Of a DNA stretch of 64,000 nucleotides, positions 32,150-47,490 are shown piece by piece. Location of the stretch: assembly GCA_002150815.3 (NCBI GenBank), contig NDFF03000067.1:62001-126000 (forward strand), written 5' to 3'. The DNA is from Grammothele lineata (Eukaryota > Basidiomycota > Agaricomycetes > Polyporales > Polyporaceae). The position numbers and the translations under genes are program-made. Each line of letters opens with the position of its first letter. Position 1 is the stretch's first letter. The notes below the pieces were generated by a model. That model saw only the letters and a list, made by a program, of their open reading frames with translations. It was not told where the DNA came from and searched no databases.

Positions 32150-34035
32150 ATGTCCTCAGCCGACGAGGCTGCTGCGTTCATTGAGGAAGCGTACAGCTTG
32201 TACGTTCCCCACCACCTCCCCGCATCCGTCTACACCTCACTTTGAACCGTGCCACCTACCAGGGTCATTTCCAACACCATCGCGAATGCGGGTTCGGGTA
32301 AATCTTTTGAATCTCCGCGTCGCTGCGGTCCCGTGCACGGAGTGCTCACTGATCATCCCGCTCTTCCTTGCGCAGCACTCGTCGTGTATGAATACGTCAT
32401 CACTTTCGGCCGGGAGGTCGAGCTTTACTGGACGCGGGGTGTGTCTGGGGCATCCATATTGTTCTACTTCAACAGGTACCTCAGTCTCGTCGTCAATATC
32501 TATGGGCTGTTTCAGAACATGCCCGTCTCCGATAAGGTGAGCCTCGCTATCGCGTGAGTCAATCGTCTCTCCAGGTGTTGAGCGCACCTCCAGGCGTACG
32601 TGTCCACAAACTCCGTCTTGTCTAGAACGCCTCGATTGATCTGAATACGCCAGTTGTGTGGCACAATCGTACTCTGCGAAGATCCTAAACATCATGCAGT
32701 ACTTCCCATGGGCAGGTATGTACGCCCCTTCTCTGACGTGGCAGTAATGCTCACTTGGTCGCAGTATTCTCTGGGTTACGAGCATATGCGCTCAGCCGAA
32801 ATATACCTCTCTCTGTCCTCATTTTCCTTCTCTCATGCCTGCCTCTGGGAGTGAACTACGTACGCTCACTGTGACTTGAGTTTCGTTCTGCTCTCACGCT
32901 CGCGGGTAGGCGCACCAACATTTCAACTTCACTGGCGTCAATGAACCCCTCGTCGGCTGCTTATCGAGCGACGACTTACCCTCGTCCTTGTCCACGAAGT
33001 GCGTGCGCCTTCGCTCCTGTACTATCCTCTGAATCTCATTCGTGATTTGGGGTAGGTGTGCGTGACGTCTCACGCCAACGTCAAATCTTTCAGAACTTGG
33101 TACTAATGTCTCCCTGCTGTGTTCTAGTCACGATAATTTCGCGGACGGGTCTGATTACGTCCGACGTCTTCCTCATCTGCATAACGTGGTATTTTCTTTA
33201 CCGGAGAAGCGCGCCTGGCGCGTTCTTCAAGAATGGCTTTGTCGGTGTACTCCTGCGAGATGGTGCGTTCCTCTCCCTCAGGACCGCCGCAGTTATACTG
33301 AACGCGTTGGCTTCCAGGAACGCTCTTCTTCGTGTACGACCCTTCCGATGCTCTCCTACGTACAGCCACTCATCATCAACGTTTACTGTGCATATGTACA
33401 GCGTCTTGCTTATTGTCAACACCCTCCATCTCACGTTGACCATGCTCTCCGTGTGTCGCCGGTTCCCTCGCTTCCACGCATCACACTTTCCTGATAATGC
33501 TCTGCGCCATCGCAGATTGAGTTCGCGGTGCACAACGTCGGCTACATCACCGGCCTCTCCGAGCCGTACGTCCCTCTCCGCTCCAGCGCCTCTCCGGTAA
33601 CTACGACCCGCACCTGATATCCCTCGACCCCGATTCGGCAGGCTCACCACCATCCTCGTCTCCCGCTTCCTCCTGCATCTCCAAGCCGCGCACCGGCACG
33701 CGATCTCCGGGCACGGCACCTCTACGCTCCGCGCATCTCGCTCACTCGGAGCAGGTGGGGGTGAAGGTGAGACGTCCATGGTGGACCACACGCTCGTGTT
33801 CGAGCGCGTTGTGGGTTCGCTTGGGGAGACGATCGACCCGGACAAGGAGGGGTACTTTGGACGGGGGTATGAGTATGAGTATGAGTGGGACGAGGTCGAC
33901 GCGAAGGATGAGCGGGAAGGGACGGCGATGGTGGAGGAGCTGGAGATGGGTCCGTTGAGTGGATCTAGCTCTGAATCGCCCCAGACTCCGAAGAGGATGC
34001 GGACATTCGACGGGGACCGTGCGGAAGCATCATGA
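32150..34035 (+). CDS. DUF6533 seven-helix membrane protein 1
   Basis: Predicted 379-residue integral membrane protein of a basidiomycete-specific family. The N-terminal DUF6533 part reads YEYVITFGREVELYW and FYFNRYLSLVVNIYGLF; further helices include FSGLRAYALSRN and TIISRTGLITSDVFLICITWYFLYRR; the C-terminal 110 residues are hydrophilic (FERVVGSLGETIDPDKEGYFGRG). Exons: 32150-32199, 32263-32297, 32376-32536, 32594-32595, 32654-32715, 32765-32859, 32910-32998, 33056-33057, 33128-33262, 33318-33333, 33402-33450, 33516-33565, 33642-34035. The sum of 1140 nt needs both 2-nt micro-exons. Receptor-like topology is inferred; no ligand or partner is known. It heads a group of three paralogues. Confidence 0.85.
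32594..32595 (+). other. 2-nt micro-exon (GC), DUF6533 gene 1, first site
   Basis: CCTCCAG-GC-GTACGT. GC plus the T of the next exon gives Ala between Lys and Cys-Val. Flanking introns are 57 and 58 nt. Same position and phase as in the two paralogues. Confidence 0.75.
33056..33057 (+). other. 2-nt micro-exon (GT), DUF6533 gene 1, second site
   Basis: GGGGTAG-GT-GTGCGT. It joins AA with TC to give AAG-TTC (Lys-Phe) ahead of TIISR, the family block usually written KLTIISR. Flanking introns 57 and 70 nt. Confidence 0.75.
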
Positions 34036-35236
34036 AAATGATAGAGCAGTGCAGGCATGGTCCTTAATGCACACATTTTGTTACTACTACGGATGGCCAT
34101 GATAACGTGAGCCGAATATCTGTATGTGTCTGAGAACGTTCGAACCTTCCTCGAGATCCGCCGACAGGTCCATCTGTCACCTGCTTGGCGCAGCTTGCGC
34201 CACCTTTCTCCTAGGGTTGCGAAGGCACGAATCTTAGAAGCAACGGTCGTCAGTTGCCAATAGGTGGATCCAAACGCGAAGTTGAACTTGATGGTAGTAT
34301 GCGCCCGTGAATAGCAGGCGCACCGAGGATATGAATCAAGATCACTGAGGTGGAAAGATCTTTCGCTCGGCGATGCCAGCGCCGTCTTCCCAGACGGCGG
34401 TGCCGTCGAAGACGTGGAAAAGCGTGGTCGTGAGTACTCAACATTGGTAAACGAACAGTTATCGCGTGCCAAGGCTCAATAGCGTCCCCGGCCAAACCCG
34501 GCCCGCAAGTATTCAGAAGGACCACGTGGCCTTCAATAGTCGTTGAACGCTTGCACGCTTGACTCTCAATCAACTTGCACTGTACCATGATGAGTCCTCT
34601 TGCGAATTGCAACCGGTGTTAGCTCATTTGGGCTGTCCTATCACAGCTTTATCCGCGGCTAAAGATAGTCGTCCCTCCACAAGTACCCATCTGGTCGTAG
34701 TCAAACTTGAGATAATTGCGAAGTGCACGCCGGTAACCAGCCGCTTCTCTGTTCGGTTTTGGTGCATCATCCGGCATACGTCTGAAGTCCTTTCTCGGTT
34801 TACAGCACATGAGTTCCAGCTTCTGCTTCATTGGAAGTTGTTTTAAATGGGAGCTTAGCTAGGATTTCTCAACAGCACGCACACCTCTATCCGACCTTGT
34901 GTACTTGAATCTACTAGCCAAGGGCAGTGTCGTGTGCGTGTCGAAACATTGGCGAATATCATGGCTACGGCGCCCGACCGTCTCGGGACCGTGGTGGCAG
35001 GCGAACTATGGCACAGGCTGTGGCGGCTGTCCGAGAACAGGTGGTAACTCCCAGTCCCTTCCGGAGAACTTAGATCTTGGGATACAGATCAACAGTCTAC
35101 GACCCGTCCCGTAGCTTTCGGATTCTAAACAATAAATTTTCTCAGCCTTGGATGTACATAAAGGGGAGGGCGAGGAAGCGTGTAAAATATCCCAGTCTTC
35201 CCTCCTCTCAGCCTGGGCCGCCTCCCTATTTCAATC
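34036..35236. other. intergenic
   Basis: No gene seen. A TATA-like ACATAAAGG at about 35156-35164 precedes DUF6533 gene 2. Confidence 0.5.
35156..35164 (+). promoter_or_regulatory. TATA-like box of DUF6533 gene 2
   Basis: ACATAAAGG 73-81 bp upstream of the ATG at 35237. Confidence 0.4.
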
Positions 35237-37059
35237 ATGTCTGCAGCTGGCGATGCGGATACCACTGCGATAGTCGATCAGTATTATAGCTTGTTTGTGT
35301 CTTCGTTTTTCTCCGAAGATTTATGTGTAAATTACTTACACTGCGTCCCAACTAACTACTAGGATCCTTGATAATGCCTTTTCGCTTGCAGGTTCTGGCG
35401 AGTACACATCCCTAATCCATGTCGTGCTCTACAGTCTTGTGTGTTCACTCCGCACTTTTTCCTGCAGCACTCCTCGTATACGATCATGTCATCACATTCG
35501 ATCGGGAAGTCCAGCTATTCTGGACACAGGGCATCTCGGGTGCATCCATTATTTTCGGCTTCAACAGATATCTCACCCTATTCATCATCATTTACGGGTT
35601 GTTTGATTTTTTGCCCCTCTTTGGCAAGGTGAGCACCACTGCCCGCACGACGGTGTCTCTAGATATTAACTTAATGGTTTTTCAGAGGTGCGTGTAATGA
35701 GAATCATCATTCAATCTTTATCTCATCAAGAGCGGTTTGGGTAATACGGCTACACTAGCTGTGTGCTAGTCACGATATCATTGCATATCATACACATCAT
35801 GGAGTACTTCCCGTGGGCAGGTGCGTTCGTCCTTTTACCTGCATAGCAACCATTTCTCATTGTCTTGCAGTTTTTTCCGGATTACGGGCATATGCTCTGA
35901 GCCAAAACATGCTTCTCTCCATGCTGATATTCCTTCTCTCTTGCTTGCCTCTGGGAATAAACTACGTGGGTAACATTGTCTCGTTTATCTAAGTTCAACG
36001 CTCACGGGCTCTCATGCTTATGAATAGGCATACCATCATTACAACTTCACTGGCACCTATGATGAATTTTTGAACTGTCTGCCGACATACGACCTGACAT
36101 TGTCTATGATCACGAGGCGAGTGTTCTATCTCGGATGAACTTGTCCTCCTTCAAACGGTACTTATGTTTTTCGGGCAGATGTACGTCGCGTTCACACCGA
36201 CTTAGTTTTTCTACGAATGTCGGACAGCTGATACTGACAGCTGTTTTCCCTAATGTAGTCACAATCATCTCGCGAACGGGTCTCATTGCATCTGATGTTC
36301 TTCTCATATGCATAACATGGTATTACATCTATCGCAAAAGCGAGCCAAATTATCTCTTCAAGGGTGGGATCATTGGTGTCGTCTTGCGAGATGGTGCGTC
36401 TATTCCGATTCTTCGCCAATAGATTCCTCAACATGTTAGATCTACATTGATATTTAGGGGTGTTGCTATTCCTGTACGTCACGACTTTTGACACCTACCC
36501 ATTTCGACTCAGAACTCACATGCTACCAGTGTCTTGCTCGTGATCAATGTGCTACACCTCACCCTGACTACTCTTCAAGTATGTCATCACTCTGAAAAGT
36601 ATGTCATCACTCTGAATACCTTCCCAAATCGTCTCACCTGACTCGCTTCATTAAATCAGGTGGAACATGGAGGCTTCACTACCGCCCTGTCTGAGCCGTA
36701 TGTCTCCCCTTCCCTCTTCTCCCCTTCCCTCATCCATCCAGCTTGACGTATCTTACCCCAGTCTTACATCAATCCTCATATCCCGCTTCCTGTTGCAACT
36801 CCAAGCTATGCACCAGCACGGGCGTTCGGGATGCGCTTCCTCCCCGGGGACTGGCCAGAGTGGGGGAGAGACATCCATTGCAAACCAGTCGCTAGTATTC
36901 CAGCGTGTTATAGGTTCCCTTGGGGAGATTACGATTCCGGATGAGAACGGGTCTTTTGGGCGTGGCAACGACTATGAGTGGGGTTGGGAAGTGGATGGCG
37001 TCGGGGACGATGAGCGAGGAGACATGGAGATGGGAGCGTCGCCGGGGGTAGAAGGGTAG
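35237..37059 (+). CDS. DUF6533 seven-helix membrane protein 2
   Basis: Predicted 345-residue paralogue of gene 1 with the same 13-exon plan: 35237-35292, 35363-35397, 35468-35628, 35686-35687, 35759-35820, 35871-35965, 36028-36116, 36179-36180, 36259-36393, 36458-36473, 36530-36578, 36660-36697, 36762-37059; sum 1038 nt. Signature segments are YDHVITFDREVQLFW, FNRYLTLFIIIYGLF, FSGLRAYALSQN and TIISRTGLIASDVLLICITWYYIYRK. Two introns have GC donors: GCGAGT after 35397 and GCGAGT after 36116, where genes 1 and 3 have GT. The donor of intron 11 is followed by a tandem copy of itself and its next 16 or so bases (36579-36619). It ends 327 bp from the convergent sedolisin 1. Confidence 0.83.
35686..35687 (+). 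other. 2-nt micro-exon (AG), DUF6533 gene 2, first site
   Basis: TTTTCAG-AG-GTGCGT. AG plus C of the next exon gives Ser in Lys-Ser-Cys. Flanking introns 57 and 71 nt. Confidence 0.75.
36179..36180 (+). other. 2-nt micro-exon (AT), DUF6533 gene 2, second site
   Basis: CGGGCAG-AT-GTACGT. It joins AG with TC to give AGA-TTC (Arg-Phe) ahead of TIISR. Flanking introns 62 and 78 nt. Confidence 0.75.
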
Positions 37060-37386
37060 GGTATAAGCCAATCCGGGGGGGGGCGAGTTCCGAACGAACA
37101 GTGCGCATGCCGGCCATGGGAGGAGTTCATGCGGAAGCTGAAAGACAGAGCTTGAAGTGATGACTCGAACGCTACATATCCAAGAGTGTATGCCTATTTA
37201 TTCCTACCCTGTCACACGCAGATCTGTACATTGCCTGACGACCGTTTACGAATTTTTCTGAACCCTTATCGCCTCTACCAGTCCCGTCCATGACTGGTTT
37301 CGCCAAGATAGTCCCCGAACTGTATGCTGCACTCGCACGTCATAACACTGACAGAACGTGCCTACTAAGGCGCATCACTGCGGCGT
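37060..37386. other. convergent 3' spacer
   Basis: 3' ends of DUF6533 gene 2 and sedolisin 1. The equivalent spacer between gene 3 and sedolisin 2 is 274 bp, fitting a block duplication. Confidence 0.5.
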
Positions 37387-39923
37387 CTACTGGAGCGCCA
37401 TCCATGCATCAAGCAATTTCTCGAAGTCAGGCGTTCCGAGGCCCGTGACTGGATCCCATCCGGGCGCGGTAACGAAGCCGAGCGACTGGTCCGGCCCGCA
37501 CGCGAAATTGTCGCCTTCAGTGATGTCGTGGAACACGTCCGCGAAGGCGTCCGAGTAGAGCTATGTCGAGATGCAGTGAGTTGAGGTCGATGCAGAAATA
37601 GAAGGAAGAGCCTGTGGGGCAGGAGGCAACAAGGGGGAAAGACGTACGGCGGGATTCGCCCACCCTACGGGCGCTTTGCCTGCGGCGATGCGTGCGTCGT
37701 TCACAGCAGTGATCATGGACGCCCACACCGGCGTCGATGCAGATGTGCCGTAGACGTTGTAGAGTGTCTGGTCGACGAATATCTGGTAATTCAACCTGAA
37801 ACCACGTGGTCAATCGCTGATGCTCGCGGATGCGGAGCAACAAGGCATGCGAAATACGCACCCATTGGCAGCGACGTCGGGATAGGCGCGGCCGGATCGG
37901 TTGAAGGCAGTGGACGAGAGGTTCCCAGTGAAGTTCTCGATGTAGTTCTGTACCGCAGCATCTTGGAAGGACGGACGCGCGATATAGTTGGAGAAGCCAC
38001 CGCCGGATTTGAAAAAGCTGACGGCGGTCTCGGGGTTTGGGTCAGTCACCTACGTATGAGTCGAGCCACGAGCATTAGAGAATAGCAGTATGAACACCAA
38101 ACGTAACTAGACTCTCACCGGTACGCCGCTCTTGACCTGTGTCGCTCCGACCGAGGTCACGTACGGGCAGATGTTGCCAACATGAGGCGCGAAGTTGGGG
38201 TTCCCCGCTGCAAGGTTACCGTCGTCATCCATACAGAAGTTGTTGAAAGTTGCGACGCCGTTGTCGCCGGAACTCATCAAGAAGGTCATGCCAGTCAGCG
38301 ACAGCTGCATTGATAGCGAGACGGCCGTGATACCGGGGATGCGCAAAATCATGTCAGCGCCACGATCATGTTACCCACCGGAAAAGGACAGCACGCACCT
38401 TTCCGTACTCCGTGCACTGACGTTGGGCAAAAAAGGGACCGAAAGAAAGTTCAACTTGATCATAAGATATAGAGATAACGTCAGCGCGTGGCTTAGTACC
38501 ACAATCCTCTGTCAGCGCAGAGCCGGTCAGTCTCTGCGGCTTCGCGGGAAACAATAGTGAGACTTACCATTACTTGGGTCAAACTGGGAGAGCTGAGGAG
38601 GGTTACCGCCCTCAAAAGTACAATAGTCGGCGTCTAGTGCGTTGAGAAGGAGATCATACTGAAGGTATGAGAAACTTGGACCACCTAACGTAGACCGCAT
38701 ACGACCGACAATCAGCATGAACAAAACGCCGGCAAAACAGTGCTCGAAGTTGCGCATACCTGAGTTAGTGACCTGGTACTGTAACACGGTCGCATTCTCC
38801 CCAAGTAGCCCCATTGCGTATTGGAAATCGAGGTTCGACTCTGAGAGAAGGCTACTGTCCGTGATGGATTGGTTGGAGATACCTACATGCGATTCAGTTG
38901 GATACGCTATCCATGCAATGCTCGAGTACCCACCTCCATCGATGCTCACGAACGTGGGCCGATTCCCTACCTGAGCGGGCGCAAATTGCTGAAAGAAGAG
39001 GTCGAGGTCGGCGAAATTGAGCGTCTCCTTTCCGAACTCAACTACGGTATCCGGGTAAGTCATGGCGTGTGCATAGAAGTCGTGGCGTCGTGTCACCTAC
39101 CAATACCAATTGAGTGTTCGTCGGGAACAACGAGGTCGACGTTGAAGTTGTAAAGTGCGCGGAGACAATCAAGCGTTGTAGCGGTATCACAGTTCGTTGC
39201 AGCATTGTTGGTCTGGTGTAGATCAAAGAATCGCTAGTAAACATGATGTTAAGTTGTAAGAGACCGAGAGCTTACCAAAGACTGAGGTGCGAACTTCGAG
39301 GGTGCCCCCTGAACAGGCGCACGTCCATCGACCGTGTCCACACTTCTACGCGAAAGCGGAACCATATCGAAGTGGACCGTCGGCCATACCGTGTCAACAT
39401 GCTTCGCGACATGCTCAGGCAGATGGTATCTGTCACCGCAGGCAATGTGCTTCGTCCCGTCCTCGTGTCCATAGACGTAGTACTCCGTCGCCAGCATTGC
39501 CTCGGCCTCGGCGACCGTCACGTTCAAATCGAGGTAGCCTCCGTCCTTGCTGAGCCGGACCCGAGAGGGATCGATGCGGCCTTCGCCTCCCAACCACGCG
39601 CGGACGGTGTCGACCGTTTCCGCGGTCGGGCGGAACGTCTCTGCGACGCGGGAAGGGGTCCAATGCTTCCCGTAGTTGGGCGAGGTCGGGTCGGCGATGT
39701 CGAGCAGATACGCCTCGAGCTTGTCGACGTTGGGTTGAGCGAGTGCAAAGGACAGAGGGATGACGAGGTCTGGATCAGCGCGCCGTTGGAGGGACCAACC
39801 GCGGGGAGTGATGGTGCGGGATTCGTGCACTACGCGCGGAGAGATGACGGTGGCGACCGCGGAAGTGGCGGCCGTTGCCACAGCGGCAAGACTGAGCAGC
39901 ATACGGAAAGATGGAGAGAGCAT
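37387..39923 (-). CDS. secreted S53 peptidase (sedolisin) 1
   Basis: Predicted 637-residue secreted acid serine peptidase. Ten exons: 39923-39276, 39212-39101, 39041-38934, 38882-38760, 38684-38568, 38508-38399, 38304-38119, 38049-37862, 37795-37648, 37560-37387. A signal peptide (LLSLAAVATAATSAVA) and a pro-kumamolisin propeptide (SFALAQPNVDKLEAYLLDIA, PNYGKHW) fill exon 1. The catalytic Glu and Asp lie in ESNLDFQYAMG, the oxyanion Asp in SSGDNG, and the nucleophile Ser in YGTSASTP. The calcium-site segment [13 protein letters not shown] closes the domain. Family members cut tripeptides or act as endopeptidases at acid pH outside the cell or in vacuoles. The protein ends ALQ where the other array members end ALP. 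All residues needed for activity are present. Confidence 0.9.
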
Positions 39924-41775
39924 CCTTAGGCGCGACTGGAGGGGAGCGTGAAAGATGTCGGAGACCAGAGGGAGGACTCCGACGACAGCACGATAGAACT
40001 ACCACACATTAAATCCTCTGGAGGAGACGCCAGGGTGTTGGGAGGCTGCTTCCAAGAACCTGTAGACGTGTTTGCGTGTCCAGAACCCTAGTCGTGATGA
40101 GTGTTGTAGTCGCTTTTGTGAGCGACAAAGAGGTCATAGTCTCGTAACTTCACCTTCCAACCTCGCAGGGGCATGAATAGAACACTGGAGAGGCCCACAT
40201 GGTGCAGTGGCTGTTTGCTACTAGGTTGGTGCAGACTCCCTTCTATGTTCCGATTTATGAAGCAATGGCGCTGCAGACTGTTCGTTCGGTATCAGATCGG
40301 GTTCGCTTCATTACGAAAGTGAAGTGAGCAAACCTCTTTGAGGCGATACAATTACCAAAGATGCGACTTCGTCCTGCTGTTGGCCTGTCACGCACGGACT
40401 CGGATCCGGGACATGACAGCTAGACCGGGGTAAGAAGGCGTGTTGAAGTCGCCCACTCTATCTCGAGCTGGAATCGACTCTGGGATCGGAAGTTGTGCCA
40501 ATAATCCCATCAAGGAGCTGGATTGGAGAATCGTCATAGGCGTAACGCGGAAGAAGCACACACTTTCTTCATCGACCACGATTCTAGGCTAGACTCTACA
40601 CGCCAGCTGCCAGAGGGATTTCAAGTGGCACGTGAAGAATGCCACGGGGGACGGAAGAAGTCGGGATACAAGATTCGGATCCGGATCAGCGGCTTGGAGT
40701 CTGCACGTGATGAAAAAAGCGGTAAAAGCCGAATACCGATTCCCGAATGGGATCGTAATCTCTTCTCTATTCGCTGCTATGACCGCCTTTCACGGGCTGA
40801 CAGCAACATCAGCTCGGATATTCGTGTCCTTCGCACTCGGATCTCACCCACGATCACGATTCTCCCCAAACATCTCGAGTCATCTCGGGCCTCCGGTCGC
40901 AGCAAAATTGTGGCGTCTGACTCACGCCGGCCCCTAGCCACATTTCTCTTCCGGTACTACATCGTTCACGAATTAACCGATTGCTCGGCTGACAGCAAAT
41001 GAAACTCGTTTCAGCATTTACATGAACCCACTGAAGACATGATTCTAATAGGTCAGTGCTTACTTTACCGATCCTACAAGCAGGCTTGATACCATCGTAG
41101 GCAACGGGTGCAGACGGCCGGGATTACCCTGGGGGAAACCACGTAGAGCTTGAAGCAAGGTGCGTGGACCTGCAGTCTGGAGAATAGCCCAGAGTGGCGG
41201 CGGTGGCGCCTGCACGAGAACGAGCTGCGACCTCTTCGAAGTGGCTTCATGCCAACCGGATCGCTTCCGGCTTCGGTAAGGAAGCCTAGCAGCTTCTGGC
41301 CTGTGGACATTTGAATCCCAGCTCCCCCAGCTAACGACAATGAGTATGTAGACCGGGCTAGTGAGTTCTCTGACGGGGTCTGGATACTATCTATTGGCGT
41401 GTATCTGTAAGAGCAGGTCACCCGCATTCATGTGCTAGCTGAATACACGATATTATGCTGCGGGTTTATTTGAGTCCATTGGAGCGCCATGTGAATTCGT
41501 GCGAGGTCAGATTCACCGGAAGACTCCCTTTACATGAATGCTCGGTGGCGCATCTTTTTCGGAGAGGCCAATGTATTGCCTTGCCAAGATGCGCCGCGTA
41601 CCAGATATGTGGATTGTCAAGGGCAGTTATGGTTTCCAATCAGTTTGTGTCCATCAGATACATTGCGTGAAGTGCGATTCGTACACCGTAGCGCGGCCGC
41701 CATGGCAAGTACTTAAGCTTCACGGCGAGGGCTCATGATTGTGTTCCTCTCCATCATCTCTCTGTTACTAAGATC
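39924..41775. other. intergenic
   Basis: The first 350 bp upstream of sedolisin 1 are recognisably related to the region upstream of sedolisin 2 (46550-46900), for example the runs near 40240-40300 and 46825-46890. A 159-codon frame at 40523-41002 has no recognised domain and is left uncalled. Nothing else seen. Confidence 0.5.
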
Positions 41776-43648
41776 ATGTCTTCATCTGTAGACAGCGTGA
41801 CCACAATAATTAACCAGGAGTACAGCTTGTACGTTCTTCCTTACCTCCCCGAGTACTTGTTCACCATGCGCTGCTTACACCCAGTCCAGAGTTATTTTTA
41901 ACACCCTCGCGAACGCGGGTTCTGGTAATTTTCGGCATCGTACTATGACTAACAGGCGTTGACCGTGTCTTTCTGTCTACAGCACTCGTTGTGTACGAAT
42001 ATGTCATCACATTCGGCCGGGAGGTCGAACTTTACTGGACACAGGGTGTCACAGCGGCCTCAATGCTATTCTACGCCAACAGGTACATAAGCCTTGCCAT
42101 CAACATATATCAGCTTTTTGAGAACCTACCCGTCGGCGATTTGAAGGTGAGACTCGTTGAGTGATGGGCTGCTTATCACAGTACTCAACATAATTACAGA
42201 GGTGTGTTACGGTGGTTTTGATTTCGTCAGTCCGGACGATATCACTCATGCAAGTACGCCAGCTGTCAGTCAATTATGGTGTCTGCCCTAATCATAAGCA
42301 TAATGCAGTACTTTGTGTGGGCTGGCACGTCTGTTTTCTTTGAACGCCGCGGCAATTTCTCACTAGTCACAGTATTTTCTGGGCTCCGGGCGTACGCGCT
42401 GAGCCAACAAAAGATTCTGTCCGCGTTCATCTTCTTCATCTCGTGCTTGTCTATCGGGGCAAATTACGTACGTGCAGCTCACTATGTCCCCTTACCTTTA
42501 CTCTGCACTTACATCTCGTACCGTTGAGTAGGCCTACTTTCATTTTAACATCACTAGCTTTATTGACCCACTCGTCGGCTGCGAAGTGAGCTACGGCATT
42601 CCTCCTTCTCTCGTCATAAAGTGCGTGCCATCTCTTTGAATGATTCAAGTTCTTATACACGTTATTCATGATGTCTTATCAGGCGTATGTTACGTTTAAA
42701 TCCAAGTTGGACCTTCCCGATCGGACGTTGGACGCTGACTTGGCGATCGTGCCTCTCATCTTCCAGTCACAATCGTTTCACGGTCAGGGCTGATTGCATC
42801 AGACGTTCTTCTCATATGTATGACCTGGTATTACCTCTACCGGAGGGGCACACCGGGTCCGAATGTACTCTCCGGCGGGGGCTTTCTCGGCGTACTCCTA
42901 CGAGACGGTGTGTTCTCCCTTGTCTCCCAAGTTCATAACCATGCTGAAATTACGCCAACGATTAGGAGCACTGTTCTTCGTGTATGTAGCTACGAATTGC
43001 TGTTCGTTTTTACGTTGATGTTGTATGACACCTTTCACTAGCGTCTTGTTCATTGTAAACACCCTCCACCTGGTCCTAACCTTGTTCAATGTGCGTATTC
43101 GCCCCAATCTCCCTTGCACGTCGCAACTTCCTAATTCCCCACGCCTTTCTAGAATAACCCCAAGGTATTCAACTTCAGCTATGTAACCGCCTTTTCCGAG
43201 CCGTACGTTTTTCTTTCCCTCCGCTCCGCTCCCTTTCCTGAATTTCATATCCGACGCGTCTCACCATAGCATTACAACGATTCTGGTATCCCGTTTCCTC
43301 CTCCACCTCCAAGCCGCGCACCGACATGCGATCTCCGGTCGCGGCTTCTCCCTCGGTGGCGGTGGGGACGGACTTGGGGGAGTAACGTCCATGGAAGGCC
43401 AGAATTCAGTCGTATTCCAGCGCGTTATCGGCTCGCTCGGAGAGACGATTGAGCCACATAAGGATGGGTATTTCGGACAGGGATACGAGTACGAGTGTGA
43501 GCGGGAGGTGGATACCGACATCAATCCGGACGCGGAATGTATGGGTGATGGACAAGCCAGCAGTCAGGGGGGGCTGGTTGTAGTAGAAGAGCGGGGGATG
43601 AGCCTGCCGAGCGGAGCCATCGTTGAGGGAGCTGACGCCGAAGCCTAG
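41776..43648 (+). CDS. DUF6533 seven-helix membrane protein 3
   Basis: Predicted 378-residue paralogue. Exons: 41776-41828, 41890-41924, 41983-42146, 42200-42201, 42263-42324, 42373-42467, 42532-42620, 42683-42684, 42767-42907, 42966-42981, 43042-43090, 43153-43202, 43270-43648; sum 1137 nt. Signature segments are YEYVITFGREVELYW, FYANRYISLAINIYQLF, FSGLRAYALSQQ and TIVSRSGLIASDVLLICMTWYYLYRR. The intron after 42324 begins GCACGT, a GC donor, where gene 1 has GTATGT and gene 2 GTGCGT. An alternative acceptor near 42255 would give a different in-frame join at the first micro-exon in this gene only. It is convergent with sedolisin 2, mirroring the gene 2/sedolisin 1 pair. Confidence 0.83.
42200..42201 (+). 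other. 2-nt micro-exon (AG), DUF6533 gene 3, first site
   Basis: ATTACAG-AG-GTGTGT. AG plus C gives Ser in Lys-Ser-Cys. Flanking introns 53 and 61 nt. Confidence 0.7.
42683..42684 (+). other. 2-nt micro-exon (GC), DUF6533 gene 3, second site
   Basis: CTTATCAG-GC-GTATGT. It joins AA with TC to give AAG-CTC, so the protein reads KLTIVSR. Flanking introns 62 and 82 nt. Confidence 0.75.
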
Positions 43649-43922
43649 CTTGACGAAGCGGCAACGCATATCTTGACTCACAGAATATACAGACATTAGT
43701 TCCTGCTGCTACTTACTCTCGTGGTATATGCCCTAGATCTACACCTAATACCCACTGGCACGAATGAATTTGTTTGAATCTCACGTCCCCTGATACTACA
43801 AGTTACTGACTGTACTGTGTCGTCGAAAGTCTGAGCATACTCCGGCCATACGCTACGCTAACGAGTCCTCGAACCTGGTTCTAACTAAGGCTAGAAATAC
43901 CCGCAACTAGGCTCTACTACGT

Positions 43923-46458
43923 CTACGGAAGCGCCATCCATGCAGCAAGAAGCTTCTCAAAGTCGGGCGTCCCAAGGCCCGTGACGGGGTCCCACCCGGG
44001 CGCAGTGACGAAGCCGAGTGACTGGCTAGGCCCGCAAGCGAAGTTGTCGCCCACGGTGATGTCGTGGAATACCCCCGCGAAGGCGCTAGAATACAGCTGC
44101 ATGGGAAGCGGAAGCAGTGAGTTAGGCTTCAGACATCGGTGGAGGGACAAGTGGGGTGTGAAGGAAGGGACATACAGCGGGGTTCGCCCACCCTACAGGC
44201 GCCTTGCCTGCGGCGATGCGCGCGTCATTCACGGCGGTGATCATGGACGCCCACACCGGTGTCGATGCGGACGTTCCAAAGACGTTGAAGAGCTCTTGGT
44301 CGACAAAGACCTGATAGTTCAACCTGAGAGAGCGCAATCAGTCGATGTCTATCAACGCGCGCAGGCGGCTGCTGGCAACGGAGCGCAGCAGGGAACACGA
44401 AGCACGTACCCGTTGGCGGCGACGTCGGGGTAGGCGCGGCCGGAGCGGTTGAAGGCAGTAGAGGAGAGGTTGCCAGTAAAGTTGTCGATGTAGCTCTGCA
44501 CGGCAGCGTCTTGGAAGGACGGACGCGCGATGAAATTGGAGAAGCCGCCGCCCGACTTGAAGGAGCTGACGGCCGTCTCAGGGTTCGGGTCGGTTACCTG
44601 ATACAACGCCCCGCATTACGAATATTGAGTATTCGCAGTATCGTTATGGAGATACGACGGTACGCTCACCGAAACACCGCTCTTGACCTGTGTAGCGCCA
44701 ACTGAGGTGACATACGGGCAGGTGTTGCCAATGTGCGGCGTGAAGTCGGAGTCGCCCGTCGCGAGGTTGCCATTGTCGTCCATACAGACATTGTTGAAGG
44801 TTGCGACGCCATTGTCGCCGGAACTTACGAGGAAGGTTATGCCAGTCAAGGACAGCTGGACGATGGTTGGCGGTGATAGCGGGTGCACGCAACGCGGATC
44901 AACGCAATCAGCCACAATCAAACTACGCGCGCCGAAGGGATGACGACGCGTACCTTGCCATACTCAGTACACTGGCGTTGGGCAAAGAAGGAACCGAAGG
45001 CGAGCTCGACCTGGTCATAGGATATTGAGATGACGTTGGCGCGCGGCTTGGTACCGCAGTCCTCTATTGTTCGAAGACTCAGTCAGCATACAGCTGCCGG
45101 CGATAAAGGAACGCCAGACGCACCATTGCTGGGATTGAACTGGGAGAGTTGGGGAGGATTCCCGCCCTCAAACGTGCAGTAGTCGGCATCGAGCGCGTTT
45201 AGAAGCAGGTCGTACTGAAGGTAGGCGAAGCTCGGACCACCTAATGGAGATTATCAGTACCCGAGGGCCCGGCGGATGCCATGGACGTCATGTCACTGTA
45301 CCTGAGTTGGTGACTTGGTACTGTAGCACGTTCGCGTTCTCTCCGAGAAGCCCCATCGCATACTGGAAGTCCAGATCTGACTCCAGCAGTAGGTTACTGT
45401 CCGTGATGGACTGATTGGAGATGCCTGTACGCGGGTCAGCTACGCTAGTAGAGAATGTAGAGTCTAAGAAGCTGACCTCCATCAATGCTCACGAATGTGG
45501 GTCGCTTCCCCACCTGAGCAGGAGCGAACTGCCGGAAGAAGAGATCGAGGTCGGCGAAATTGAGCGTTTCCTGTCCAAATTCGACTATCTCCGCGCGTCA
45601 GGCTCTGAGGGTACGAGTGGCGGCGTCGTTGCAACTTACCGATACCAATGGAATGTTCGTTGGGAACGACGAGAGTGGTGTTAAAGTTGTAAAGTGCGCG
45701 AAGACAGTCAAGTGTCGTTGCTGTATCGCAGTTCACAGCCGCAGCAGTAGTCTAACGGCCATTAGCGGATTATTAGCGCACATCAGACAAGATTCAATGA
45801 GCTTAAATCATACCAAGGACCCGGGTTTGAACGTTGACGGTGTCCCTTGAGCAGGTGCACGCCCATCAATCGTGTCCACACTTCTCCGAGAAAGCGCAAC
45901 CATATCGAAGTGGACCGTCGGCCATACCGTGTCAACGTGCTTTGCGACATGCTCAGGCAGATGGTATCTGTCACTGCAGGCAATGTGCTTCGTCCCGTCC
46001 TCGTGTCCATAGACGTAGTACTGTGTCACCAGCATCGCCTCGGCCTCGGCGATCGTCACGTTCAGATCGAGGTAGCCTCCATCCTTGCTGAGCCGGACGC
46101 GAGAGGGATTGATACGGCCTTCGTCTCCCAACCATGCGCGGACGATGTCGACCGTTTCTGCGGTTGGGCGAAACGTCTCTGCAACACGGGTAGAGGTCCA
46201 GTGCTTCCCGTAGTTGGGCGAGGTCGGGTCGGCGATGTCGAGCAGATACGCCTCGAGCTTGTCGACGTTGGGTTGAGTGAGGGCAAAGGACAGAGGAATG
46301 ACGAGGTCTGGGTCGGCGCGCCGCTGGAGGGACCAACCGCGCGGAGTGATGGCGCGGGATTCGTGCACTACGCGAGGAGAGATCACGGTAGCGGCCGCGG
46401 AAGCGGCCATTGCCACAGTGGCAAGACTGAGCAGCATACGGAAAGGCAGCGCGACCAT
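43923..46458 (-). CDS. secreted S53 peptidase (sedolisin) 2
   Basis: Ten-exon gene, closest relative of sedolisin 1 within the array: long identical runs in the propeptide (RVVHES, ITPRGWSLQRRADPDLVIPL, DLNVTIAEAEAML). A signal peptide is present (MLLSLATVAMAASAAA, preceded by an in-frame ATG six codons earlier that was taken as start). The catalytic Glu and Asp lie in ESDLDFQYAMG, the oxyanion Asp in SSGDNG, Ser in FGTSASTP, and the calcium segment is [13 protein letters not shown]. It ends MALP. Exon phases equal those of copy 1. With DUF6533 gene 3 it forms the second unit of a duplicated pair. Confidence 0.9.
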
Positions 46459-47490
46459 CCTTGAGAGTGGGTAGAAGGGAGCGTGAAGGATGTCGGAGGC
46501 TTAGGGAAGGATCCCGATAGCAGCTAGACGGAGACCAATGCGCTTTATATGCGCTGGCCGAGAAGGTGGGATGTTGAGTGGACGCTTCCAGGAGTCTATG
46601 GACACAACTCGCGCCCGACGTCTGGTCGTAACACACACCATGTTCGTGGTGAGCAGCAAGGGGATCACCTGTGCGCAGTCTGGGCTAGCCTCGAGGAAAC
46701 ATGAATAGCGGCTGTGTAGAGGTCCGCGTGGTATCGTGGTAGTCCGCCGCCAGGTTGGACTTGCTGTTCCGTGCAAGACCGTGGGATCATTATGATAGAC
46801 CGAATACATCCGCGCTTGTCTCCCGGTTTTGTGTTCCTGTTTGTGAGGCATTAGCGCTTTAGTGATTGTTCGTTGAACCCGACCGGATCCAGATCGAGGC
46901 TGCTCTGCCGGGGTAACGAAGCGTACATACGGTTATTTCGAGGCCGCCGTGCCTGGTCTTCCAAATGCCGAAGATGCGGCTGTGAGAGTCCGTTGCGCCG
47001 GGATCATCAGAGTCACGGTCAGACTCAACGTTAGCGCGATACGCAGCGTTTAGCTTGAATTCTAGGTAGTTTCCGCCATGGAGTGGATAGAGCTGGCTAT
47101 TGCCTCCTTGCGGGCATGCTTATGAGATGTTGGAGGGTGCCGTGCTAGGCCACGCAGTGAACAGCTGGCTGGGCTGAGGAAGTTGAAGCTTGAAGCTTGA
47201 AGTGCGCGGCGAGTCGTCTGTCATCATGTCACAGCAACATCACGTGACTATCATCCAGAGCCGTCTACCACGTGGCGAACTTAAGAATCTCGACCGTTAT
47301 TTCTTATAGCTGCAAGAATAGCGTAGCAGTACCCTAGACTACAACCGCAGTACCCCAAGGCAGATGGTACCAGCTTTTCAAAGCTACTCGTGTAGGCGAG
47401 GCCCACAAGACGCACAGCGCGCCTCTGGGAACATGCAGTAAAGCGCTGGACGCGATACCGCGACGCGATCGGCGAAATCCTTCGTCAGCC
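46459..47490. other. intergenic
   Basis: Promoter of sedolisin 2 (related to that of sedolisin 1) and 3' flank of sedolisin 3. No further gene seen. Confidence 0.5.
46544..46549 (-). promoter_or_regulatory. TATA box of sedolisin 2
   Basis: TATAAA on the minus strand about 86-91 bp upstream of the ATG. Confidence 0.55.

What the first reader, a model, noticed from the sequence alone, without database searches (positions are those of the whole stretch)
32537..43648. Conserved 2-nucleotide micro-exons in three DUF6533 paralogues
Each gene has two places where two exons clearly belonging to one frame are separated by a gap about twice the normal intron length, and joining them directly breaks the frame by two bases. 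In all six gaps a consensus acceptor is followed after exactly two bases by a consensus donor: CAG-GC-GTACGT (32594), TAG-GT-GTGCGT (33056), CAG-AG-GTGCGT (35686), CAG-AT-GTACGT (36179), CAG-AG-GTGTGT (42200), CAG-GC-GTATGT (42683). Including them makes all three coding sums multiples of three (1140, 1038, 1137), gives a Lys-Ser/Ala-Cys join at site 1, and restores KLTIISR-type sequence at site 2. Half-introns are 53-82 nt, like the rest of the window. Exons this small cannot be recognised by normal exon definition, so they suggest intron-defined or stepwise splicing. Standard gene finders would mis-annotate these genes.
Basis: partly seen in the sequence, partly recalled or inferred. Interest (0 to 1): 0.92.

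Follow-up and report, generated by a model that had tools for sequence, protein, structure and literature searches.

The report
Two-base exons in mushroom membrane-protein genes
A large family of mushroom membrane-protein genes appears to carry, at two fixed places, an exon only two bases long between two short introns, which public annotation often gets wrong and which tests how small a piece of gene the splicing machinery can handle.

Summary
In detail: all six acceptor-NN-donor sites lie where stated, and the three coding lengths are 1140, 1038 and 1137. The feature is much larger than three genes. A spliced-profile aligner that I wrote, scored on proteins of other fungi and with no preference for small exons, recovers all 36 introns of the three genes. 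In 83 DUF6533 genes of this genome (these three and 80 others) it calls a 2-nt exon at site 1 in 56 and at site 2 in 62 (58 and 63 after refinement), and at no other junction of genes scoring 200 bits or more. Five paralogues lack the second site-1 intron and carry the two bases fused to the next exon. Annotated homologues from other Polyporales have insertions at both junctions (27 and 31 of 119, against 0-5 at eight ordinary junctions), many decoding as read-through of the flanking donors. No RNA of this organism was available. Known kind (1-nt exons exist in plants and Fusarium), unusual scale.

The parts
32150..34035 (+). gene 1 (DUF6533), 13 exons, CDS 1140 nt
   Evidence: all introns recovered by profile spliced alignment; Pfam PF20151
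32537..32593 (+). gene 1 site 1, upstream half-intron (57 nt)
32594..32595 (+). gene 1 site 1, 2-nt exon GC (Lys | Ala-Cys)
   Evidence: best alternative 10.0 bits lower
32596..32653 (+). gene 1 site 1, downstream half-intron (58 nt)
32999..33055 (+). gene 1 site 2, upstream half-intron (57 nt)
33056..33057 (+). gene 1 site 2, 2-nt exon GT (Lys-Phe of KFTIISR); a single 127-nt intron 33001-33127 with a GC donor would give the same mRNA
   Evidence: alternative 6.2 bits lower
33058..33127 (+). gene 1 site 2, downstream half-intron (70 nt)
35237..37059 (+). gene 2 (DUF6533), 13 exons, CDS 1038 nt, GC donors at 35398 and 36117
35629..35685 (+). gene 2 site 1, upstream half-intron (57 nt)
35686..35687 (+). 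gene 2 site 1, 2-nt exon AG (Lys | Ser-Cys)
   Evidence: best rival, 13.1 bits lower, is itself a 2-nt exon shifted by two bases
35688..35758 (+). gene 2 site 1, downstream half-intron (71 nt)
36117..36178 (+). gene 2 site 2, upstream half-intron (62 nt, GC donor gcgagt)
36179..36180 (+). gene 2 site 2, 2-nt exon AT (Arg-Phe of RFTIISR)
   Evidence: best alternative 21.2 bits lower
36181..36258 (+). gene 2 site 2, downstream half-intron (78 nt)
41776..43648 (+). gene 3 (DUF6533), 13 exons, CDS 1137 nt, GC donor at 42325
42147..42199 (+). gene 3 site 1, upstream half-intron (53 nt)
42200..42201 (+). gene 3 site 1, 2-nt exon AG (Lys | Ser-Cys)
   Evidence: best alternative (weak acceptor ending at 42254) 7.5 bits lower
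42202..42262 (+). gene 3 site 1, downstream half-intron (61 nt)
42621..42682 (+). gene 3 site 2, upstream half-intron (62 nt)
42683..42684 (+). gene 3 site 2, 2-nt exon GC (Lys-Leu of KLTIVSR)
   Evidence: best alternative 42.2 bits lower
42685..42766 (+). gene 3 site 2, downstream half-intron (82 nt)

Best explanation
The DUF6533 family of this polypore carries two old, constitutive 2-nt coding exons in most of its genes. Site 1 (intron phases 0 then 2) lies just before the conserved Cys at the start of the third membrane helix. Site 2 (phases 2 then 1) lies near the start of the fifth. Each 2-nt exon is flanked by two ordinary short GT-AG (rarely GC-AG) introns of 43-94 nt, each recognised as a unit by intron definition. 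Because the acceptor AG and the next donor GT are only two bases apart, the upstream 3' splice-site complex and U1 on the downstream donor would occupy the same bases, so the two introns must be removed one after the other. The two bases of the exon serve both as part of a codon and as the exonic half of the downstream donor. Skipping the exon shifts the frame, usually into an early stop. Shown by sequence: position, length, frame, family-wide conservation, single-intron forms, near-ordinary splice signals. Inferred: actual inclusion in mRNA, sequential order, constitutive use.
For: Spliced alignment with a profile from 119 external proteins and hand-set splice-site weights, no bonus for small exons: 36 of 36 introns of genes 1-3. 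83 genes, the three included: 56 (site 1) and 62 (site 2) exons of 2 nt; in the 65 genes scoring >=200 the only other internal exons <=14 nt were one of 4 and one of 8 nt at site 1, none elsewhere; over all 83 genes four such exons elsewhere (0, 2, 3 and 9 nt) in low-scoring loci. Forbidding exons under 10 nt costs a median 17.5 bits and at least 10 bits in 54 of those 65 genes. After refinement 58 of 81 covered and 63 of 79 covered genes; 43 genes have both, pairwise identity median 33%, minimum 20%. Fused forms: 5 genes with the two bases joined to the downstream exon at site 1 (L055, L059, L066, L070, L074); single-intron forms at the other boundary, clearest in L083, L068 and L031. Donors preceded by AG are weaker in intronic bases, both in 548 ordinary introns (5.29 against 7.08 bits, p 1e-11) and after site-1 exons (4.19 for AG, n 30, against 7.50, n 28, p 3e-5), as expected if U1 reads the two exon bases. 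The codon begun by the second base of site 2 is Leu or Phe in 50 of 63. Skipping meets a stop inside the matched region in 57 of 58 and 52 of 63. External proteins: insertions at sites 1 and 2 in 27 and 31 of 119, against 0-5 at eight ordinary junctions; 13 of 31 site-2 insertions decode as read-through of a donor one base into the codon (1.6 expected, p 1e-9; 0 of 26 control; 4 of the 13 also fit the upstream donor), 6 of 31 and 5 of 26 as read-through of the upstream donors, 3 of 26 as read-through of the site-1 downstream donor (p 0.009).
Against: No transcript of this organism was available. Gene by gene the alternative can be close: 6.2 bits (gene 1 site 2), 7.5 bits (gene 3 site 1) and 10.0 bits (gene 1 site 1); in the refined run, which allows introns up to 150 nt, gene 3's advantage over any model without exons under 10 nt falls from 29.7 to 11.5 bits. 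23 of 81 and 16 of 79 covered genes do not show a 2-nt exon in the refined run; some have lost introns, some look re-arranged or wrongly modelled, some may be pseudogenes. Site-1 downstream introns have weaker donors (5.52 against 6.80 bits) and fewer strict branch-site motifs (32% against 53%) than ordinary introns, little above the 21% of shuffles. Counting deletions as well as insertions, one ordinary junction (exon 11/12, 58 of 119) and some background windows (up to 54 of 119) are about as broken as the two sites (65 and 64), so only the insertion count is specific. 18 of the 31 site-2 and 21 of the 26 site-1 insertions do not decode as read-through of, respectively, the downstream and the upstream donor. 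Other species were seen only through annotated proteins, not DNA.
Confidence: 0.92

Rival explanations
1. There are no micro-exons: each gap is one long intron (100-127 nt) and the frame is kept by another donor or acceptor, sometimes adding a few residues.
For: In-frame alternatives exist: gene 1 site 1 donor 32554 (gtgagt), gene 1 site 2 GC donor 33001 (same mRNA), gene 3 site 1 acceptor ending at 42254.
Against: Single introns of 100-127 nt would be far outside the ordinary range (median 60, 95th percentile 80 nt). The alternatives of the three genes differ from one another, while the 2-nt solution recurs at the same place and length in 58 and 63 genes. Paralogues with one intron missing show the two bases as coding sequence. 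54 of the 63 site-2 exons are not GT and so cannot be absorbed as a shifted donor in the way of gene 1 site 2.
Confidence: 0.05
2. The gap is a stwintron (nested twin intron) or a recursive splice site, the two bases being part of a split splice element.
For: Two consecutive introns with touching splice signals, as in fungal stwintrons (definition from abstract starts listed).
Against: The two bases are kept in the product and needed for the frame, and each intron occurs alone in paralogues that lack the other, so neither needs the other to form a splice site.
Confidence: 0.02
3. Many members are pseudogenes or misassembled, and the 2-nt exon is an artefact of forcing a frame.
Confidence: 0.02

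Closest known systems
1-nt exon of CYP621A P450 genes in Fusarium (PMC12940212; main text parts 1 and 2 of 3 read)
   Same: Ultra-short exon required for frame inside a conserved motif, doubled intron length, flanking AG/GT, missed by annotation.
   Different: 1 nt, one site, in 20-24 genes spread over Fusarium species, confirmed there by RNA reads; here 2 nt, two sites per gene, 121 calls in 83 genes of one genome, no RNA yet.
1-nt micro-exons of plant APC11 and VPS55 (PMC8831610; passages only)
   Same: Old, conserved, often un-annotated; relatives exist in which the introns were lost and the base is subsumed in a large exon.
   Different: Two genes with few copies per genome and 1 nt; here a large, clustered family with 2-nt exons at two sites.
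Micro-exons of Phanerochaete chrysosporium P450 genes (PMC1184071; passages only)
   Same: A wood-rotting basidiomycete with short introns and tiny exons.
   Different: Shortest exon given there is 6 nt.
Spliceosomal twin introns (stwintrons) (search listing and abstract starts only)
   Same: Two adjacent or nested introns removed one after the other in fungi.
   Different: In stwintrons an internal intron splits a splice element of the other; here two complete introns are separated by two retained coding bases.
SNB1 (snowball) of Coprinopsis cinerea, a DUF6533 seven-helix protein (PMC10949477; section 8 and passages)
   Same: Same Pfam domain, seven predicted membrane helices; by the paper's title required for fruiting-body patterning.
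   Different: Gene structure at the two sites was not compared; the passages seen do not mention micro-exons.

Membership tests
Ultra-short constitutive micro-exon (3 nt or less) | Internal exon of 1-3 nt between a complete acceptor and a complete donor | tested here: met
   At sequence level
Ultra-short constitutive micro-exon (3 nt or less) | Required for the reading frame; skipping breaks the protein | tested here: met
   (stop in 57 of 58 and 52 of 63 when skipped)
Ultra-short constitutive micro-exon (3 nt or less) | Position conserved among homologues, with intron-loss forms carrying the same bases | tested here: met
   Within this genome
Ultra-short constitutive micro-exon (3 nt or less) | Conserved in other species | tested here: inconclusive
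   Only through annotated proteins: insertion pile-up and donor read-through; no DNA of other named species
Ultra-short constitutive micro-exon (3 nt or less) | Inclusion in mRNA shown by reads or RT-PCR | not testable with these tools
   No RNA data held; P0003 is at best an indirect transcript
Stwintron | An internal intron interrupts the donor, branch site or acceptor of an external intron; no exon bases between | tested here: not met
   Two retained coding bases in the gene models; each intron found alone in paralogues
Recursive splicing with a zero-length exon | Acceptor AG directly followed by donor GT, nothing retained (definition recalled) | tested here: not met
   2-nt exons at both sites
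DUF6533 (PF20151) | Match to the Pfam model above its cut-off | tested here: met
   Gene 1 protein 53.5 bits against 24.1; the three window loci above cut-off (C58:94369, 97464, 103976)
G-protein-coupled receptor fold | Seven-helix bundle superposing on solved GPCRs | tested here: inconclusive

The most novel reading that the evidence does not exclude
The DUF6533 family of Polyporales holds the largest known set of exons of 2 nt or less in any genome: over a hundred called here and, by extrapolation, probably more than two hundred in this genome alone, all lying wholly inside the U1 footprint. Because skipping either exon destroys the protein, stepwise removal of the twin introns could act as a built-in gate on the whole repertoire of receptor-like membrane proteins, so that splicing efficiency sets which members are expressed.
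Probability: 0.3. Interest if true: 0.88.

Novelty: new member of a known kind. Interest (0 to 1): 0.75.

Why it matters
It offers dozens of natural variants of one extreme arrangement (acceptor, two bases, donor), with single-intron relatives as controls, in a fungus with short introns. That makes it directly testable how the spliceosome handles an exon smaller than its own footprint, in what order the introns go, and how such exons arise and disappear. In practice, 83 of the 119 public protein models examined have an insertion or deletion at one or both of these points, so reported sequences of a large family of receptor-like proteins in Polyporales probably need correction.

Tried and rejected
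Three protein searches, each scoring only about 8000 candidates, gave hits whose names, where shown, are of genera that I recall as Polyporales (only Earliella was looked up), plus a few unnamed records; other orders were not reached, so the age of the exons beyond Polyporales is open. Indel counts including deletions were rejected as a specific measure. The tree (65 genes) shows the two-intron state spread over its larger parts but is unrooted and cannot by itself tell loss from gain. Some paralogues called 'other' may be micro-exon genes missed by the aligner: L009, sister of L012, holds TAG|AT|GTTTGT at the expected place. The refined profile was partly trained on my own models, so the first-pass numbers are the independent ones; even there genes 1-3 were in the alignment (not in the scoring) from which the columns were taken. 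The wording '2-nt exon' in various spellings found no fungal case, nor did micro-exon with Agaricomycetes; some searches found the related papers. 'Largest known set' rests on these searches only.
Full report
OBSERVATION. Gene 2 uses GC donors at 35398 and 36117, gene 3 at 42325. The gene 1 protein matches Pfam DUF6533, and all three loci do in the genome search.

INDEPENDENT GENE MODELLING. To avoid fitting by eye I made a scoring profile from 119 DUF6533 proteins of other fungi (alignment; profile) and a spliced aligner that allows GT-AG or GC-AG introns of 42-135 nt, any phase, with hand-set splice-site weights and no bonus for small exons. It returned 36 of 36 introns of the three genes, including all six 2-nt exons. 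Genes 1-3 were in the alignment but not in the scoring.

THE FAMILY. The genome holds at least 150 DUF6533 hits. First pass, the three window genes included: 2-nt exons at site 1 in 56 and at site 2 in 62 of 83 genes (53 and 59 of the 80 others). In the 65 genes with a score of 200 or more the only internal exons of 14 nt or less were 46 of 2 nt, one of 4 and one of 8 nt at site 1, 58 of 2 nt at site 2, and none anywhere else; over all 83 genes there were four elsewhere (0, 2, 3 and 9 nt), in low-scoring loci. Forbidding exons under 10 nt lowers the score by a median of 17.5 bits and by at least 10 bits in 54 of these 65 genes. With a refined profile the counts are 58 of 81 covered genes (site 1) and 63 of 79 (site 2), 121 exons in all, 43 genes with both. 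Those 43 proteins are only 33% identical at the median, 20% at the least.

CHANCE. Keeping the outer donor and acceptor of each gap, the interior holds an acceptor-donor pair of at least 4 bits two bases apart in 55 of 58 and 63 of 63 genes. For the equally in-frame spacings 5, 8, 11 and 14 the numbers are 1, 8, 3, 3 of 58 and 3, 6, 4, 3 of 63. Dinucleotide-shuffled interiors reach the real score with mean frequency 0.012 and 0.002, at most 0.135 and 0.015 for a single gene. These genes were selected as having a 2-nt call; the other lengths in the same sequences are the fairer control.

NATURAL CONTROLS. Five paralogues have a single intron at site 1 in phase 0 and a next exon of 64 = 2 + 62 nt: the two bases are plain coding sequence there, for example AG followed by CTGC in L074. 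Five others have a single intron at the other boundary of site 1 (three of them low-scoring, and L024 and L084 have a further intron close upstream); at site 2 five have only the downstream intron position (L022 and L078 with another intron nearby) and one only the upstream (views). The clearest are L083, L068 and L031. L011 seems to have lost both site-1 introns. The two introns are therefore separate, complete introns. On a tree of 65 genes the two-intron state occurs in all the larger parts, with scattered exceptions (at least 15 changes for site 1 and 6 for site 2).

PER-GENE ALTERNATIVES. Removing the acceptor of one micro-exon at a time gives the best rival: gene 1 site 1, a single 100-nt intron from a GTGAGT donor at 32554, 10.0 bits worse; gene 1 site 2, a single 127-nt intron from a GC donor at 33001 giving the same mRNA, 6.2 bits worse; gene 2 site 1, a 2-nt exon shifted by two bases, 13.1; gene 2 site 2, 21.2; gene 3 site 1, a weak acceptor ending at 42254, 7.5; gene 3 site 2, 42.2. 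Single genes thus leave room for doubt. The recurrence over the family does not.

OTHER SPECIES. Only proteins could be seen. Annotated proteins of Earliella, Lentinus, Polyporus, Cerioporus, Ganoderma, Trametes, Daedaleopsis, Dichomitus, Fomes and others have insertions of at least 3 residues within one column of site 1 in 27 and of site 2 in 31 of 119, against 0, 0, 1, 0, 5, 1, 0 and 3 at the eight other junctions. Deletions are less specific: with them the two sites reach 65 and 64 of 119, but exon 11/12 reaches 58 and background windows up to 54. 36 of 119 are clean at both sites. The inserted sequences tell what was read through: 13 of 31 at site 2 decode as a common donor starting one base into the codon, that is directly after the second base of the 2-nt exon (1.6 expected, p 1e-9; the same set matches 0 of 26 site-1 insertions; 4 of the 13 fit the upstream donor too); 6 of 31 and 5 of 26 decode as read-through of the upstream donors, 3 of 26 as read-through of the site-1 downstream donor. 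The rest are not explained in this way. The proteins are related, so these p-values are optimistic. Close homologues from Ganoderma are annotated in different ways, diverging at these points: P0003 (unnamed source) and P0010 run cleanly through both, P0008 lacks residues before site 2, P0036 has 18 extra residues at site 2 and a gap from site 1 on. P0003 (401 residues) comes from a contig of 1735 bases, which leaves about 530 bases, too few for twelve introns as in gene 1 (746 nt, summed), so it may be a spliced transcript; I could not verify its source. P0161, from a 944-base contig of unnamed source, reads straight through site 1 of a close relative of L010 with the same length and the residues YIEVHSS over the TAG|AG|GTACAT core.

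MECHANISM. The half-introns have ordinary lengths and acceptors; site-1 downstream introns have weaker donors and fewer branch-site motifs. The donor weakness is concentrated where the exon is AG, and ordinary introns show the same trade-off between an upstream AG and the intronic part of the donor, which suggests that the two bases are read as the exonic part of the donor. With AG and GT two bases apart, the 3' splice-site factors and U1 should not fit side by side (inference from known footprints, recalled), so removal should be sequential, each step being the removal of a normal short intron. Skipping leads to a stop inside the matched region in 57 of 58 and 52 of 63 genes. The order of removal and any regulation are unknown.

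PROTEIN. A model of the external homologue P0001 has seven long helices, and the 50 entries listed as best structural matches are GPCRs by title. Site 1 falls just before the nearly invariant Cys84 at the start of helix 3, site 2 near the start of helix 5. A DUF6533 protein, SNB1 of Coprinopsis, is predicted to have seven helices (PMC10949477, section 8); by the paper's title the family is required for fruiting-body patterning. Receptor function is not shown here.

VERDICT. Conserved 2-nt exons, two per gene in most members of a large paralogous family, well supported by sequence and awaiting RNA; a new member of a known kind (1-nt exons in plants, PMC8831610, passages, and in Fusarium, PMC12940212), outstanding for its number.

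Noticed in passing
window 35237-46524: Tandem unit of about 6.5 kb: genes 2 and 3 are each followed by a stretch repeated at a spacing of about 6.54 kb, 77-90% identical in blocks; an ORF in the first copy, 39249-39923 (-), matches the pro-kumamolisin activation domain, so these look like sedolisin-type proteases.
   Followed up: partly
window 36577-36616: A perfect 20-base tandem duplication at the start of a gene 2 intron doubles the donor (AAGTATGT...AAGTATGT), giving two identical candidate 5' splice sites 20 bases apart.
   Followed up: no
own genome, G000: At least 150 DUF6533 hits in 41.8 Mb, many on the same contigs (for example C50, C129, C203): a strongly amplified family of seven-helix, GPCR-like proteins.
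   Followed up: partly
L048, site 1: The 2-nt exon here lies in phases 2/1 about eight bases downstream of the usual position; possible shift of both introns or an aligner error.
   Followed up: no
site-1 downstream introns: Strict branch-site-like motifs are scarcer (32%) than in ordinary introns (53%), while site-1 upstream introns have 57%; this may bear on the order of removal.
   Followed up: no
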